Assembly: GCF_015521605.1 (NCBI RefSeq)
Contig: NZ_WANV01000025.1
Span: 1 to 41,870, forward strand
Source: Thermococcus sp.
Lineage (GTDB): Archaea; Methanobacteriota_B; Thermococci; Thermococcales; Thermococcaceae
DNA: 41,870 nt
Direction: 5' to 3'
The position numbers were made by a program, and so were the translations under genes. Position 1 is the first letter of the stretch; each line of letters opens with the position of its first letter. Below are positions 1,379-10,662 of this stretch, piece after piece. The notes beneath the pieces were generated by a model. The model had not been told where the DNA came from. It was given only the letters and a program-made list of their open reading frames with translations, and made no database searches.

Positions 1379-1980
1379 TCAGAGAAGCACCTTCATCGCC
1401 TCGTAGCCCAGCTCAAAGGCCTTAACATTGGCCTCCATTGCTTTCTCCGGTACGCTGGCCTTCACGGCTTCGAGCATGGCCTCTTTGTCTATCGGGAAGT
1501 CCGGCAGAGCTGTCAAAGCCCCCACAAGGACGACGTTCTGGGCCAGTGCAGTTCCGGCCTCTTCGGCCAGCTTGAGGGCGTCTATCTCGTAGAGCTTAGC
1601 TCCAGACTTTTTGATGTTTTCGACTATCTCATCGTAGGTCACGTATTTGTCTATCTTACCCTTCACGAAGTTCTCGGTCTCGTAGGGGTGGTGTATGAGG
1701 CGCGTGTTCGTTATCACGGTCCCCTCGGGCTTCAGGAAGTATATGTACCTCAAGGCCTCCATGGGTTCGAGGCGACCTTTTCATTGGCGGCGATTTCGAC
1801 AACAATGTCGTCGCGGTAGTGGGAGACCCCCTCAACGGTGTCGAGAATCTCCGTCTGGGGCGAGCTGGGGTAGAAAGCTGTCACCTTGACGTCGGCCTCC
1901 AGGGCAGCCCTGACAATCGCTTCGTTGGTCAGCATGTAGCCCACATGGGGCTCCTCCTTCAGAACCTCTTTTAGGGACAT
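1379..1980 (-). pseudogene. Deletion remnant of an indolepyruvate oxidoreductase-like iorA-iorB pair
   Basis: Two pieces are joined. From ATG 1980 to about 1773 the frame encodes about 70 residues resembling the N-terminus of an IorA-type alpha subunit (FYPSSPQTEIL, then ANEKVA). From about 1771 a different frame encodes 127 residues matching the C-terminal two thirds of an IorB-type beta subunit (EPMEALRYI, then NVVLVGALTALPDFP). The iorA frame stops at 1750 just past the junction, and the iorB frame has lost its N-terminus. The simplest explanation is one internal deletion removing most of iorA and the start of iorB, joined out of frame near 1771-1773. The enzyme normally oxidises aryl-pyruvates to aryl-acetyl-CoA with ferredoxin; neither piece can do so. 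Good frames on both sides suggest a recent event. Confidence 0.8.
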
Positions 1981-2145: not shown

Positions 2146-2625
2146 TCACGGGATATTCGATTCTATAGTCTTTATCTCTTCGTCCAGGATGTCTCGTATC
2201 TTCTTCAGAAGCTCCAGGTACTCTTTGACGGCCTCTTTGTCCATCCCCTTTTTCTCGCCAAGGGCGTCGAGCTTCTTCTTGAGGGCCTCGTGATAGTTCA
2301 CAGACGTGTATAGAACCCGCAGAGCAAGATCGTTCGAGACCTTCAGATACTCGAGCCCCTTCGGGGTGAGACTGTACTTGACGCGCCTCACCCTCCCGCG
2401 GTACTCCTCCCTCGGCTCCAGAAGGCCCTCCTCAACCATCTTGCTGAGGAGGGTGTAAAGGTTGCTGTGACTCGGCTTCCAGAGGCCGATTGCAAGCTTC
2501 TCAAGCTCCTTAAGTATCTCGTAGCCGTGGGCCTCACCCTTAAGCCCAACTATCACCAGGATTATATCCTTCAAGGGGACAGTAAACAACCCCTTGATGA
2601 TTCTGCGTTCCACGTCAGTTCCCAT
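2146..2625 (-). CDS. PadR-family transcriptional regulator
   Basis: The N-terminal winged helix has the PadR signature: a K-G-E-A-H-G-Y-E-I-L run, the S-N-L-Y-T-L-L-S-K-M recognition helix and a wing with R-G-R-V-R-R-V-K-Y. The C-terminal half is a charged helix suited to dimerisation. I chose ATG 2625 (159 aa) because GGGTGA sits just before it; an in-frame ATG at 2640 would add five residues. It lies about 120 bp downstream of the oleate hydratase gene on the same strand but has its own TATA (minus-strand TTTATAAG near 2662-2670). PadR proteins are usually repressors responding to small molecules, often of the adjacent gene. The ACAT array in front of the hydratase is an obvious candidate target, but that link is inference. 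Confidence 0.85.
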   Translation of the reverse strand: MGTDVERRIIKGLFTVPLKDIILVIVGLKGEAHGYEILKELEKLAIGLWKPSHSNLYTLLSKMVEEGLLEPREEYRGRVRRVKYSLTPKGLEYLKVSNDLALRVLYTSVNYHEALKKKLDALGEKKGMDKEAVKEYLELLKKIRDILDEEIKTIESNIP

Positions 2626-2681
2626 TGTTTTCACCCGCATTTTGAAACTATCTGTGAAACCCTTATAAAAGCATCTTCAAC

Positions 2682-2742: not shown

Positions 2743-4416
2743 TCACAGCCTTCCGGCGAGATAAAGCATCATGGTGTGCTTGAACAGCTCCTTCTTGTCG
2801 TTGTCGACGAGCGTCTCTATAGCTTTCACCAGAACAGGGACCTCCTGATAGGGCGTGTGCGCCGGTGGAACCTCCCTGCCGAGGTCTAAGAGGCTGTAGA
2901 CGCCCATCATGGCCGACTTAACCGAATACTCGACGGTGAAGACACACTCACCGGGTATCTCGACATACTGGCCCATCAGGGCAAGGTTGGCATAGTTCTC
3001 CGGGATGACTGGTGGCCTGTCGCCGGGCTTCCTCGGCATGAAGTGGGCGGTGATATAAGGCATCATGGCCGTGCGGACGTTAATAACAGTCTCCATGAGC
3101 TCGTCCTTCTTCTCAAGCCAGCCGAGGTGGTAGAGAAGCTCCAGGAATATCTCCCTGCCCGTGGCCTGGCTCATCGGCTTCTTGATGTAGTCTCCCTCCC
3201 TGTCGACGAACAGCCCATAGCCCCAGAGGACGGTAACGTCCTCCGGCTGGTTCCTGAAGTGCGGCTGCCTGAAGGCCACGATGGACATCAGCCATGAGGA
3301 GTCCCTGAAGGTAACCAGGCCCCCGGTTCCGGTCCTGTTGCCCGTGAACTCCTCGAGCATCTTGAGGAACTTATCTCCCTTGAAGGTTATCGTGAAGGAC
3401 TCCCACTTGGTCTTGTCGATGTCGCCCGCGAAGACGTCGGGGTTTCCGAGGGACGGGTCCTTCTCGACGAGCTTTCTCCAGAGTTTCCAGCTGTCGCCCT
3501 CGCCCCTGTTGAGAACCGGCGGGTGGTCGAGGTCGCCGTAGGTGGAGTTGTCCACCATCGAGCCGAGGGTTATGAAGACGAGGTCCTTCTCCCCGACCTC
3601 TATGACACCCTCACCGTTCTGACCCTTGGTGTAGAGCCGGGTGATGTACTTCCTGCCGTCCCTCTCGGTTATCTCGACGTCAACCACCTTGGTTCCCATT
3701 ATGAAGTTGACTCCCCTCTCCTTGAGCCACTTCTGTATCGGAAGGATTATCGAGTCGTACTGGTTGTAGGGAGTCCTCTTGACGCCCTCTATCCTGTTGA
3801 GGCCGGGGACGAGGTGCATGAAGCGGAGCATGTAGCGCCTCATCTCGGCAACGCTGTGCCAGGGCTGGAAGGCGAACATCGTGGCCCAGAAGTACCAAAA
3901 GTTCGTCTCGAAGAAATCCTTGGAGAACCACTGCTCTATAGTTATTCCGCCGAGCTTCTCCTCAGGCGTCATGATGAGTTCGTTCATCTCGTTGAGGTGC
4001 CGGAAGGTCAGCCCGTATTTGCTGAAGTCCACCTTTTTGCCCGGCGTTCCGACGAGGCGACACTTGGAGGAGCCAACGTACTCCTTATTGAACTCCACAA
4101 CCTCGTCGAGGATGGTCTTCTCCGGGTCGTCGAGCGAGGGGATGCTGCCGAGGAGGTCCCAGGTTGCCTCGTAGTGCTCCTCGAACATCCTGCCGCCCCT
4201 GAGCAGGTAGCCGTTCTCCGGGTCGCCGGAGCCGTCAAGGCAGCCGCCGTTGACCGGGGTCTTCTCGATTATGTGGATGTTCTCTCCAGGCATTTTGGCG
4301 TCCCTTATGAGGAAAACCGCCGCCGCAAGGGAGGCTATGCCGCCGCCTACCATGTAGGCCTTCCTCTCTTTGATGTCCGGTATCTTCCTGGGGGTTACGC
4401 GCTTGTAGTTTAGCAT
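2743..4416 (-). CDS. ohyA: Oleate hydratase (myosin-cross-reactive antigen family)
   Basis: This 557-residue protein fits the FAD-binding fatty-acid hydratase family across its length. There is an FAD Rossmann motif (VGGGIAS, residues 23-29), the family loop RGGR (73-76), SIPSLDDPEKT, the YNQYDS motif carrying the proposed proton-donor Tyr, and a conserved C-terminal region (AMMPYITAHFMPR, then YSVKSAMMGVY). Characterised members add water to the cis-9 bond of oleate to give 10-hydroxystearate. In the RGGREM motif of the common enzymes the residue after RGGR is Glu, thought to activate water; here it is Met77. From memory, a minority subgroup also has Met there. ATG 4416 follows GGTGAGG; a GTG at 4425 is less likely. 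Archaeal membranes lack acyl chains, so the substrate may be environmental fatty acid. Acquisition from Bacteria is likely but not shown. Confidence 0.93.
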   Translation of the reverse strand: MLNYKRVTPRKIPDIKERKAYMVGGGIASLAAAVFLIRDAKMPGENIHIIEKTPVNGGCLDGSGDPENGYLLRGGRMFEEHYEATWDLLGSIPSLDDPEKTILDEVVEFNKEYVGSSKCRLVGTPGKKVDFSKYGLTFRHLNEMNELIMTPEEKLGGITIEQWFSKDFFETNFWYFWATMFAFQPWHSVAEMRRYMLRFMHLVPGLNRIEGVKRTPYNQYDSIILPIQKWLKERGVNFIMGTKVVDVEITERDGRKYITRLYTKGQNGEGVIEVGEKDLVFITLGSMVDNSTYGDLDHPPVLNRGEGDSWKLWRKLVEKDPSLGNPDVFAGDIDKTKWESFTITFKGDKFLKMLEEFTGNRTGTGGLVTFRDSSWLMSIVAFRQPHFRNQPEDVTVLWGYGLFVDREGDYIKKPMSQATGREIFLELLYHLGWLEKKDELMETVINVRTAMMPYITAHFMPRKPGDRPPVIPENYANLALMGQYVEIPGECVFTVEYSVKSAMMGVYSLLDLGREVPPAHTPYQEVPVLVKAIETLVDNDKKELFKHTMMLYLAGRL

Positions 4417-4429
4417 ATTCCTCACCTTA

Positions 4430-4465
4430 ACATGTCTTTATTATACATGTCATTTTCTAACATAT
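4430..4465 (-). promoter_or_regulatory. Triple ACAT(G/A)T operator array of the oleate hydratase gene
   Basis: ACATGT at 4430-4435, ACATGT at 4445-4450 and ACATAT at 4460-4465 are spaced exactly 15 bp apart. Each neighbouring pair also reads ATGT-N9-ACAT, close to the ATGT-N8-ACAT layout I recall for PadR operators. The array lies between the likely TATA (TTTTTAAG on the minus strand, about 4474-4485) and the start codon, covering the predicted transcription start, as expected for a repressor. The PadR protein encoded just downstream is the natural candidate. Confidence 0.6.
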
Positions 4466-4578
4466 CTTGCTAACTTAAAAATATTTCGGAAGCAGTTCAT
4501 TAAGACAGGTCCGTAGAGTAGTGTGAAACATCACAAGCACTCGAAGAATTCAGGATAAGTGGATCCAAAAAAGAAAGC

Positions 4579-9652: not shown

Positions 9653-10609
9653 TCAACCACCTAGGTAGCGGGCGAAGAAGTTCTTGGCCTCCTTCTCGTC
9701 CTCGGCACCGCGGATTACCATTCTGCCCGTCCTGAACACCAGTATCTCGGCGTAGTCGTCCTCGAACTGGATGAACTGGCTCGTCTTCAGGTACTCGATG
9801 CCGAGCTTCTCAAGCCTCTCCGCGAACTCGTCGAGGTTTATGCTCATGGGTACGGGCGGCGTCACCTGTATCGAGCCGTCGCACATGCGCTCGACCTTTA
9901 TCCGCTTTTCGAGAAACGTGAGTTCCTTCCTCACACAGGCGGGACAGTCCTCCCTCCTCGGTATCCTGACCTTCTCGAAGTCCATGCTCTTGAGGTCAAA
10001 GAATAACAGTTCGCTCTCGACCTCCTCGCCGAGCAGAATCTTCGCCGCCAGGGCAACGGCCAGTGATGCCGCGAAGCTTGGAACATAGCTCATTATTCCC
10101 GCTATCGCACAGGTCGGCAAAGGCCTTTCGGGGAGTTTGGGCATCAGACAGCGGAAGCAGGCGGTTTTTCCGGGGATTATCGGCATTATGTTGCCGTAGG
10201 TTGCCAGGACACCCACGTAAATCCAGGGCTTGTTGTTTTTGACCGCGTAGTCGTTTATGACCTGCCTCGTGTAGATGTTGTCAGTCCCGTCGATTATCAG
10301 GTCAGCTTCGTCCAGGAGACCCACCGTCCCGGGGTTGAGGTCTTCGAAGTGCCCCACGACCCCGAACCGCTCCTTCAGAACCTCAACCTTCGGCTTTCCG
10401 ACGTCCTCCTTGGTGTATACCGTCCTGGGGAGGTCGCTCTCGTCCACGAAGTCCCTGTCGATAACGATTATCCTTCCAACACCGAGCTTGTGGAGGAAGT
10501 AAACCTCCCAGCTGCCCAGAGCGCCGGCTCCGACAACGGCAACGGTGCTCTCGCTCAGCTTTCTCTGTCCCTCGATTCCTATGATCGGGAAGTGCCTCGA
10601 AAAGTCCAT
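9653..10609 (-). CDS. ThiF/MoeB/UbaA-type E1-like adenylyltransferase
   Basis: This 318-residue protein has the E1 fold: nucleotide motif VVGAGALGSW, D-R-D-F-V-D-E-S-D-L-P-R-T, D-G-T-D-N, the candidate catalytic Cys in P-L-P-T-C-A-I-A-G, and zinc-binding pairs CFRC and CPAC. Such enzymes adenylate the C-terminal Gly of ubiquitin-like sulfur carriers for thiolation or protein conjugation. After the second zinc pair, about 85 further residues form an alpha/beta extension I do not recognise, perhaps a small carrier-like or regulatory domain. Pairing with thiI points to tRNA thiolation or cofactor sulfur transfer. ATG 10609 follows a GGTGGGGG site. Confidence 0.88.
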   Translation of the reverse strand: MDFSRHFPIIGIEGQRKLSESTVAVVGAGALGSWEVYFLHKLGVGRIIVIDRDFVDESDLPRTVYTKEDVGKPKVEVLKERFGVVGHFEDLNPGTVGLLDEADLIIDGTDNIYTRQVINDYAVKNNKPWIYVGVLATYGNIMPIIPGKTACFRCLMPKLPERPLPTCAIAGIMSYVPSFAASLAVALAAKILLGEEVESELLFFDLKSMDFEKVRIPRREDCPACVRKELTFLEKRIKVERMCDGSIQVTPPVPMSINLDEFAERLEKLGIEYLKTSQFIQFEDDYAEILVFRTGRMVIRGAEDEKEAKNFFARYLGG

Positions 10610-10662
10610 CTTTACCCCCACCATACTCTCACCACTGGGGGCTCTGTGGAGGGGATAAAAAG

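What the first reader, a model, noticed from the sequence alone, without database searches (positions are those of the whole stretch)
2743..4465. Oleate hydratase in an archaeon, with Met replacing the usual Glu
A full-length member of a family best known from bacteria stands in a Thermococcales genome whose own lipids have no acyl chains. The residue after the RGGR loop, Glu in most characterised enzymes, is Met77, while the YNQYDS motif and FAD site are intact. This could be a variant subgroup with altered water activation, used to detoxify environmental unsaturated fatty acids.
Basis: partly seen in the sequence, partly recalled or inferred. Interest (0 to 1): 0.7.

Follow-up and report, generated by a model that had tools for sequence, protein, structure and literature searches.

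The report
Archaeal oleate hydratase under exporter-linked repressor
A Thermococcus archaeon, whose own membrane lipids contain no fatty acids, carries a fatty-acid-hydrating enzyme whose promoter shares a DNA control site with a hydrophobe efflux pump in related species, which suggests an archaeal defence against toxic environmental fatty acids.

Summary
An intact oleate hydratase (PF06100) lies at 2743-4416 on the minus strand, with Met77 in place of the usual Glu. The Met by itself is not new. It occurs in about 30% of the family (HFam1, HFam3) and is characterised in Rhodococcus; archaeal members are also known. The Thermococcus enzymes form a separate deep lineage, at most 53% identical to any other sampled sequence, at the Glu/Met boundary. 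They are patchy within one genus, under strong purifying selection, and exchanged among Thermococcus species.

The new result is regulatory. A palindrome, CATGTC-N7-GACATG, overlaps the hydratase promoter in every copy examined. The same palindrome lies between a PadR-family repressor gene and a divergent MMPL/RND exporter gene in relatives. All 27 exact hits in 434 kb of Thermococcus sequence lie at these two kinds of site. In the window organism the PadR gene sits directly behind the hydratase, and the exporter is missing from its ancestral locus.

The best reading is that PadR controls an unsaturated-fatty-acid (or similar amphiphile) defence made of exporter plus hydratase. It parallels the oleate-induced ohyA/farE/tetR response of lactobacilli. 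Substrate, induction and PadR binding are inferred, not shown.

The parts
2743..4416 (-). Oleate hydratase (ohy) coding sequence, 557 aa from ATG at 4416 (an in-frame GTG at 4425 lies inside the SD)
   Evidence: PF06100 E 1.7e-209 and NF010584 over cut-off; model matches 7kaw at TM 0.95; dN/dS 0.02-0.09
4183..4200 (-). RGGRMF activation loop, residues 73-78; Met77 codon at 4186-4188
   Evidence: alignment with Glu-type and Met-type members
3751..3768 (-). YNQYDS motif; Tyr220 corresponds to Y241 of EmOhy / Y201 of SaOhy
3259..3279 (-). Substrate-carboxylate region VAFRQPH: Val380, Phe382, His386 where EmOhy has T436, N438, H442
   Evidence: Phe382 in all six Thermococcus rows of that alignment and one Glu-type Clostridium only
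4264..4356 (-). FAD-binding Rossmann motif (residues 21-51, GGG...E)
4420..4426 (-). Shine-Dalgarno-like GGTGAGG, conserved in most Thermococcus copies
4431..4449 (-). Operator CATGTATAATAAAGACATG (consensus CATGTC-N7-GACATG), between TATA box and start codon
   Evidence: conserved in the Thermococcus ohy promoters and found upstream of PadR/MMPL in relatives
4446..4464 (-). Second, imperfect operator-like palindrome TATGTTAGAAAATGACATG overlapping the first
   Evidence: 2 mismatches
4475..4483 (-). TATA box TATTTTTAA of the ohy promoter (position conserved)
2146..2640 (-). PadR-family winged-helix regulator, 164 aa, directly downstream of ohy; orthologue of the regulator next to the MMPL exporter in relatives
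   Evidence: PF03551 E 4.4e-15; 73-90% identical to PadR proteins at the MMPL loci

Best explanation
The gene encodes a functional FAD-dependent fatty acid hydratase of the Met type. It probably adds water to a cis double bond of free unsaturated fatty acids (or similar amphiphilic acids) that leak into the cell from bacterial or animal debris, making them less membrane-active. Its promoter carries a palindromic operator between the TATA box and the start codon. A PadR-family repressor most likely binds it; in related species the same palindrome controls the divergent gene pair of that PadR and an MMPL/HAE3-type RND exporter. Exporter, repressor and hydratase would thus form one regulon: the amphiphile releases PadR, the pump expels it and the hydratase converts it. 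The hydratase is the mobile, optional part of the regulon; pump and repressor are inherited with the chromosome. In the window organism the repressor gene sits directly behind the hydratase and the pump is gone from its old locus. Shown: enzyme family, fold, active-site residues, selection, distribution, operator sharing, gene order. Inferred: substrate, PadR binding, induction, benefit.
For: Family, fold and intact active-site elements. Purifying selection, dN/dS 0.02-0.09. Operator CATGTC-N7-GACATG: 27 exact hits in 434 kb of Thermococcus sequence, all in ohy promoters (11) or PadR-MMPL intergenic regions (16); one further ohy promoter and one further PadR-MMPL region with 1 mismatch. The flanking promoter DNA has diverged except TATA, operator and SD. 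The divergent gene is PF03176 MMPL, with partial matches to HAE3 and HpnN models and solved MmpL5/MmpL4/MmpL3. Among genomes at least 90% complete, all 10 with ohy have the PadR orthologue, against 23 of 40 without (Fisher p 0.009). Lactobacilli induce ohyA, farE (RND exporter) and tetR together on oleate, with farE vertical and ohyA horizontal (PMC11429459); here too pump and PadR track chromosomal genes while ohy does not.
Against: No activity, binding or induction data. Fatty acid supply in hot vents, and fatty acid toxicity to ether-lipid membranes, are not documented here. Thermococcus has Phe382 where EmOhy has the carboxylate-binding N438, so the substrate may differ. In the window genome the MMPL gene was not found in the window or in C16:8000-72877, the only stretches examined, so the full regulon is shown only in relatives. 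MMPL exporters carry many hydrophobic cargos. The Fisher test ignores relatedness.
Confidence: 0.6

Rival explanations
1. The regulon acts on an isoprenoid or other endogenous archaeal lipid: the Met-type enzyme hydrates a double bond of an unsaturated isoprenoid or its acid, and the MMPL pump moves the lipid (MMPL relatives include hopanoid and mycolate carriers).
For: Thermococcus makes no acyl lipids (established knowledge). Position 438 is Phe rather than a carboxylate-binding Asn. The exporter also matches the HpnN hopanoid-transporter model partially.
Against: The gene is present in only 12 of 61 Thermococcus genomes and absent from sister genera, unlike a lipid-biosynthesis gene, and it circulates horizontally. 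The family hydrates straight-chain fatty acids wherever tested (literature). His386, Tyr220 and the overall fold are kept.
Confidence: 0.13
2. The gene is a hydratase used in reverse or for growth: it stores or scavenges environmental fatty acids (as the 10-hydroxy acid) for catabolism rather than detoxification.
For: In lactobacilli OhyA sequesters oleate reversibly and was not needed for resistance in L. gasseri (PMC11429459).
Against: No catabolic gene neighbours in the loci examined. The shared operator partner is an exporter, not an uptake or activation gene. Thermococcales lack acyl phospholipids into which to build the acid.
Confidence: 0.12
3. The operator is bound by another regulator, or the PadR-MMPL pair and ohy share a site for a global stress regulator; the link to PadR is only positional.
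For: The window PadR promoter itself lacks the palindrome. No binding was tested. Some genomes hold PadR paralogues with about 50% MMPL relatives and no operator.
Against: No off-target exact copies in 434 kb, which argues against a global regulator. The site lies within the PadR-MMPL intergenic region in 17 of 17 genomes with the close PadR-MMPL pair (16 exact, 1 with a mismatch). In the window PadR is behind the operator-bearing ohy on the same strand.
Confidence: 0.15

Closest known systems
Met-type oleate hydratases of HFam3 (Rhodococcus erythropolis ReOhy, 5odo) and HFam1
   Same: FAD fold (model vs 5odo TM 0.87-0.92), Met at the position of E122/E82, Val at position 436, RT-x-YNQYDS signature (PMC7306040, PMC8994360)
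   Different: No 10-residue FAD-lid extension of HFam3; loop after Met one residue shorter than in most Met-type rows; Phe at position 438 instead of Ala (HFam1) or His (HFam3); at most 53% identity to any sampled non-Thermococcus sequence
Glu-type oleate hydratases of Bacillota (Alicyclobacillaceae, Paenibacillus, Clostridium)
   Same: Highest sequence identity outside Thermococcus (53%), same loop length, same short lid
   Different: Glu in the loop; mostly Thr at 436; most have EYNQYDS/KYNQYDS contexts
Oleate-induced ohyA / farE / tetR response of vaginal lactobacilli; FarE-FarR of Staphylococcus aureus
   Same: Hydratase plus RND/MMPL exporter plus a small repressor next to the exporter; exporter vertical, hydratase horizontal (PMC11429459)
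   Different: Archaeal; PadR-family instead of TetR-family regulator; hydratase and exporter linked here by a shared operator rather than measured induction; host has ether lipids

Membership tests
Oleate hydratase family (PF06100, EC 4.2.1.53) | Full-length match to the MCRA / oleate hydratase models | tested here: met
   697 bits, positions 2-495/495; NF010584 745 bits over its 567 cut-off
Oleate hydratase family (PF06100, EC 4.2.1.53) | Fold of solved family members | tested here: met
   TM 0.95 to 7kaw, 0.93 to 4uir, 0.87-0.92 to 5odo
Oleate hydratase family (PF06100, EC 4.2.1.53) | Active-site Tyr (Y241 Em / Y201 Sa) and FAD motif | tested here: met
   Tyr220, GGG...E motif
Oleate hydratase family (PF06100, EC 4.2.1.53) | Catalytic Glu of the RGGREM loop (typical, but absent in HFam1 and HFam3) | tested here: not met
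   Met77 in the window and all Thermococcus copies; not an absolute family requirement (PMC8403116)
Oleate hydratase family (PF06100, EC 4.2.1.53) | Hydration of oleate, FAD dependence | not testable with these tools
   needs an enzyme assay
HFam3 | FAD lid of 25-27 residues with GXXXG | tested here: not met
   short lid GGCLDGSG without the extension seen in L162 (PMC8994360)
HFam3 | Met in place of Glu in the activation loop | tested here: met
HFam1 | RGGRML motif with Val/Ala at 436/438 (as in Rhodococcus HFam1) | tested here: not met
   RGGRMF with Val/Phe (PMC7306040)
Any existing HFam | About 62% identity to its members | tested here: inconclusive
   best non-Thermococcus sequence in the sample 53%; the HyED database itself could not be searched
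ohyA / farE / repressor fatty-acid response | MMPL/RND exporter with adjacent repressor | tested here: met
   in relatives, PadR-MMPL divergent pair; in the window genome the exporter was not found in the stretches examined
ohyA / farE / repressor fatty-acid response | Common regulation of hydratase and exporter | tested here: inconclusive
   shared operator is strong sequence evidence but no expression or binding data
ohyA / farE / repressor fatty-acid response | TetR-family regulator | tested here: not met
   PadR family, PF03551
ohyA / farE / repressor fatty-acid response | Induction by unsaturated fatty acids | not testable with these tools
   needs RNA-seq or reporter assays

The most novel reading that the evidence does not exclude
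Thermococcus species have a PadR-controlled fatty-acid (amphiphile) stress regulon, made of an MMPL/RND exporter and a mobile Met-type hydratase and read through the operator CATGTC-N7-GACATG. It would have been assembled independently of the TetR-controlled ohyA/farE systems of Bacillota, in an organism whose own lipids contain no fatty acids.
Probability: 0.5. Interest if true: 0.65.

Novelty: new variant of a known kind. Interest (0 to 1): 0.52.

Why it matters
The Met substitution alone is an already known subtype. What would matter is an archaeal counterpart of the bacterial exporter-plus-hydratase fatty acid response, under a different repressor family. It would imply that ether-lipid archaea meet harmful free fatty acids in nature and defend against them, and that hydratases are repeatedly recruited as the optional, transferable arm of an exporter regulon. 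It also offers a heat-stable Met-type hydratase in which to test how the family works without the catalytic Glu, an open question in the field (PMC8994360, PMC13422127).

Tried and rejected
Recent transfer from a named bacterium: rejected, no non-Thermococcus sequence in the sample above 53% and a long stem of about 0.7 changes per site. Archaeal vertical clade with haloarchaea: rejected by AU test, p 1.5e-5. Independent Glu-to-Met change in Thermococcus: not decided. The best tree puts all Met rows on one side of a branch with support of only 51/49, and the active-site neighbours (Val at 436, RTPYNQYDS) side with the Met group. Membership in HFam3: rejected on lid length. Exporter or regulator beside ohy in the other genomes: no MMPL match found in the flanks held. 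The window's own conserved neighbourhood (Suf operon, DUF998, POR fragment): not conserved around ohy in relatives, so not functionally linked. Papers on oleate hydratase in Thermococcus: none in the library; papers on PadR/MMPL in Thermococcus: none relevant.

Full report
OBSERVATION. The ORF at 2743-4425 on the minus strand is real and intact. The SD-like GGTGAGG at 4420-4426 and its conservation in relatives make the ATG at 4416 the likely start, so the protein has 557 residues and the loop Met is Met77. It is a full-length oleate hydratase by Pfam (PF06100, E 1.7e-209) and NCBIfam (NF010584, above cut-off). The nearest solved relatives are oleate hydratases. An AlphaFold model (mean pLDDT 89, pTM 0.90) matches S. 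aureus OhyA at TM 0.95, E. meningoseptica at 0.93 and R. erythropolis at 0.87-0.92.

MET77 IS A KNOWN SUBTYPE. Reviews state that Glu122 is replaced by Met in about 30% of the family, mostly HFam1, and strictly in HFam3. The R. erythropolis enzyme has Met77 and M77E lowers its activity (PMC8403116, PMC8994360, PMC13422127). Archaeal members are also recorded, at about 2% of the family (PMC11669549). The residue is therefore not a novelty in itself.

WHAT IS PARTICULAR ABOUT THE THERMOCOCCUS ENZYME. The 12 copies from the genome search, and two further contigs, carry RGGRMF. In the unconstrained alignment the loop has the same length as in Glu-type enzymes, whereas most Met-type rows (haloarchaea, HFam3-like and several Bacillota rows) are one residue longer. 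The HFam3 lid extension is absent. The carboxylate-site residues are Val380 and Phe382, where EmOhy has T436 and N438; Phe here is otherwise seen only in one Glu-type Clostridium in my sample. Published frequencies for position 438 are N 48%, H 22%, A 12%, P 9% (PMC7306040). A bulky residue here might shift the regiochemistry or chain-length preference; that is inference.

DISTRIBUTION AND ORIGIN. Within the Thermococcus genus 12 of 61 genomes have the gene; none of 33 genomes in the five other genera of the family have it, and a phylum-wide draw added none. Outside Thermococcus the best identity is 53%, to Bacillota Glu-type enzymes, with haloarchaeal Met-type enzymes at 52%. In a careful tree with the loop columns removed, the Thermococcus clade is a long-stemmed lineage between the Glu and Met sides of the family. 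A clade uniting it with haloarchaea is rejected (AU p 1.5e-5), while a single Glu/Met change cannot be excluded or shown. In 11 of the 12 genomes the gene lies at one place. Where the flanks were resolved, it stands between a cupin gene and a racemase-like gene that almost touch in genomes lacking ohy, which reads as a clean insertion. ohy distances between species correlate with none of eight neighbouring or chromosomal genes (r -0.05 to 0.33), whereas most of those genes correlate with each other (mostly r 0.4-0.9, the cupin excepted). So the gene is old in the genus, under strong purifying selection (dN/dS 0.02-0.09), and exchanged among its species.

THE OPERATOR. The promoters of the Thermococcus ohy genes have diverged except for the TATA box, the SD and a palindrome, CATGTC-N7-GACATG, just upstream of the start codon. 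In the window it reads CATGTATAATAAAGACATG (4431-4449), with a second imperfect copy overlapping it (4446-4464). The TATA box (4475-4483) places the transcription start close to or inside this pair, a typical repressor position (inference). A count over all fetched loci showed the same palindrome in front of the orthologues of the window's PadR gene.

THE PARTNER. In relatives that PadR gene is divergent from a roughly 1350-residue MMPL/RND exporter (PF03176; best PDB relatives MmpL5/4/3), and the palindrome lies between the two. In 434 kb of Thermococcus sequence there are 27 exact copies: 11 in ohy promoters and 16 in PadR-MMPL intergenic regions, none elsewhere. The remaining ohy promoter (L171) and one PadR-MMPL region (L212) have one mismatch each. 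PadR-MMPL paralogues of about 50-57% identity in other genomes lack it. Among genomes at least 90% complete all 10 with ohy have the PadR orthologue, against 23 of 40 without (p 0.009; relatedness not corrected).

THE WINDOW ORGANISM IS REARRANGED. In its genome the cupin-racemase site is empty (contig C16). The place where MMPL and PadR stand in relatives is closed up: the neighbouring 292-residue gene is 141 bp from the ArsR-type gene (C16). PadR instead sits 103 bp behind ohy on the same strand in the window, between ohy and a truncated oxidoreductase gene. It has its own TATA box but no operator, so it could also be transcribed from the ohy promoter (inference). The exporter was not found in the window or in C16:8000-72877; the rest of the genome could not be searched.

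MECHANISM. The most economical reading is a PadR-repressed defence against membrane-active amphiphiles, with unsaturated fatty acids the likeliest because they are the known substrates of the enzyme family. Lactobacilli induce exactly an oleate hydratase, an RND exporter (farE) and the exporter's repressor on oleate, and there too the exporter is vertical and the hydratase horizontal (PMC11429459). Steps shown: family, fold, residues, selection, distribution, operator sharing, gene order. Steps inferred: substrate, PadR binding, ligand, induction, benefit.

VERDICT. Its emphasis on Met77 is on a known trait, while its guess of detoxification gains unexpected support from regulation. I rate the enzyme a new member of the Met-type hydratases and the regulon a new, archaeal variant of a known kind.

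Noticed in passing
window 1379-1762 (-): 127-aa C-terminal half of an indolepyruvate/2-oxoacid ferredoxin oxidoreductase beta/gamma subunit (profile matched from about position 70 on), apparently a gene fragment at the rearranged ohy-PadR site.
   Followed up: no
window 9653-10624 (-): ThiF/MoeB-type E1-like protein whose C-terminus (residues 255-320) matches the TBP domain model PF00352 at E 9e-07; an unusual domain combination, or a chance resemblance.
   Followed up: no
L101 (Actinomycetota genome) and L112 (Halobacteriota genome): PF06100 proteins without the RGGR loop and without YNQYDS (RGDRKV / HAAWKV; HHNYDS / YTLYDS), forming their own fully supported clade; L112 has an in-frame TAA. 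They may have lost or changed the hydratase activity.
   Followed up: partly
L106 (Halobacteriota), L143 (Bacteroidota), L132 (proteobacterial MAG): A second set of short-loop Met-type hydratases with RGGRMHE, found in both archaea and bacteria.
   Followed up: partly
L198 and L211 (G030, G067): MMPL exporters of the PadR locus enlarged (about 1590 residues in L198) by an inserted stretch resembling coiled-coil proteins.
   Followed up: no
L168-L178 versus L193, L199-L201: ohy separates a cupin gene from a racemase-like gene that almost touch in genomes lacking it: a clean insertion site for an accessory gene.
   Followed up: yes
L209 (G020) and L218 (G062): PadR-MMPL pairs of about 50-57% identity without the palindrome: probably paralogous systems with another operator.
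   Followed up: partly
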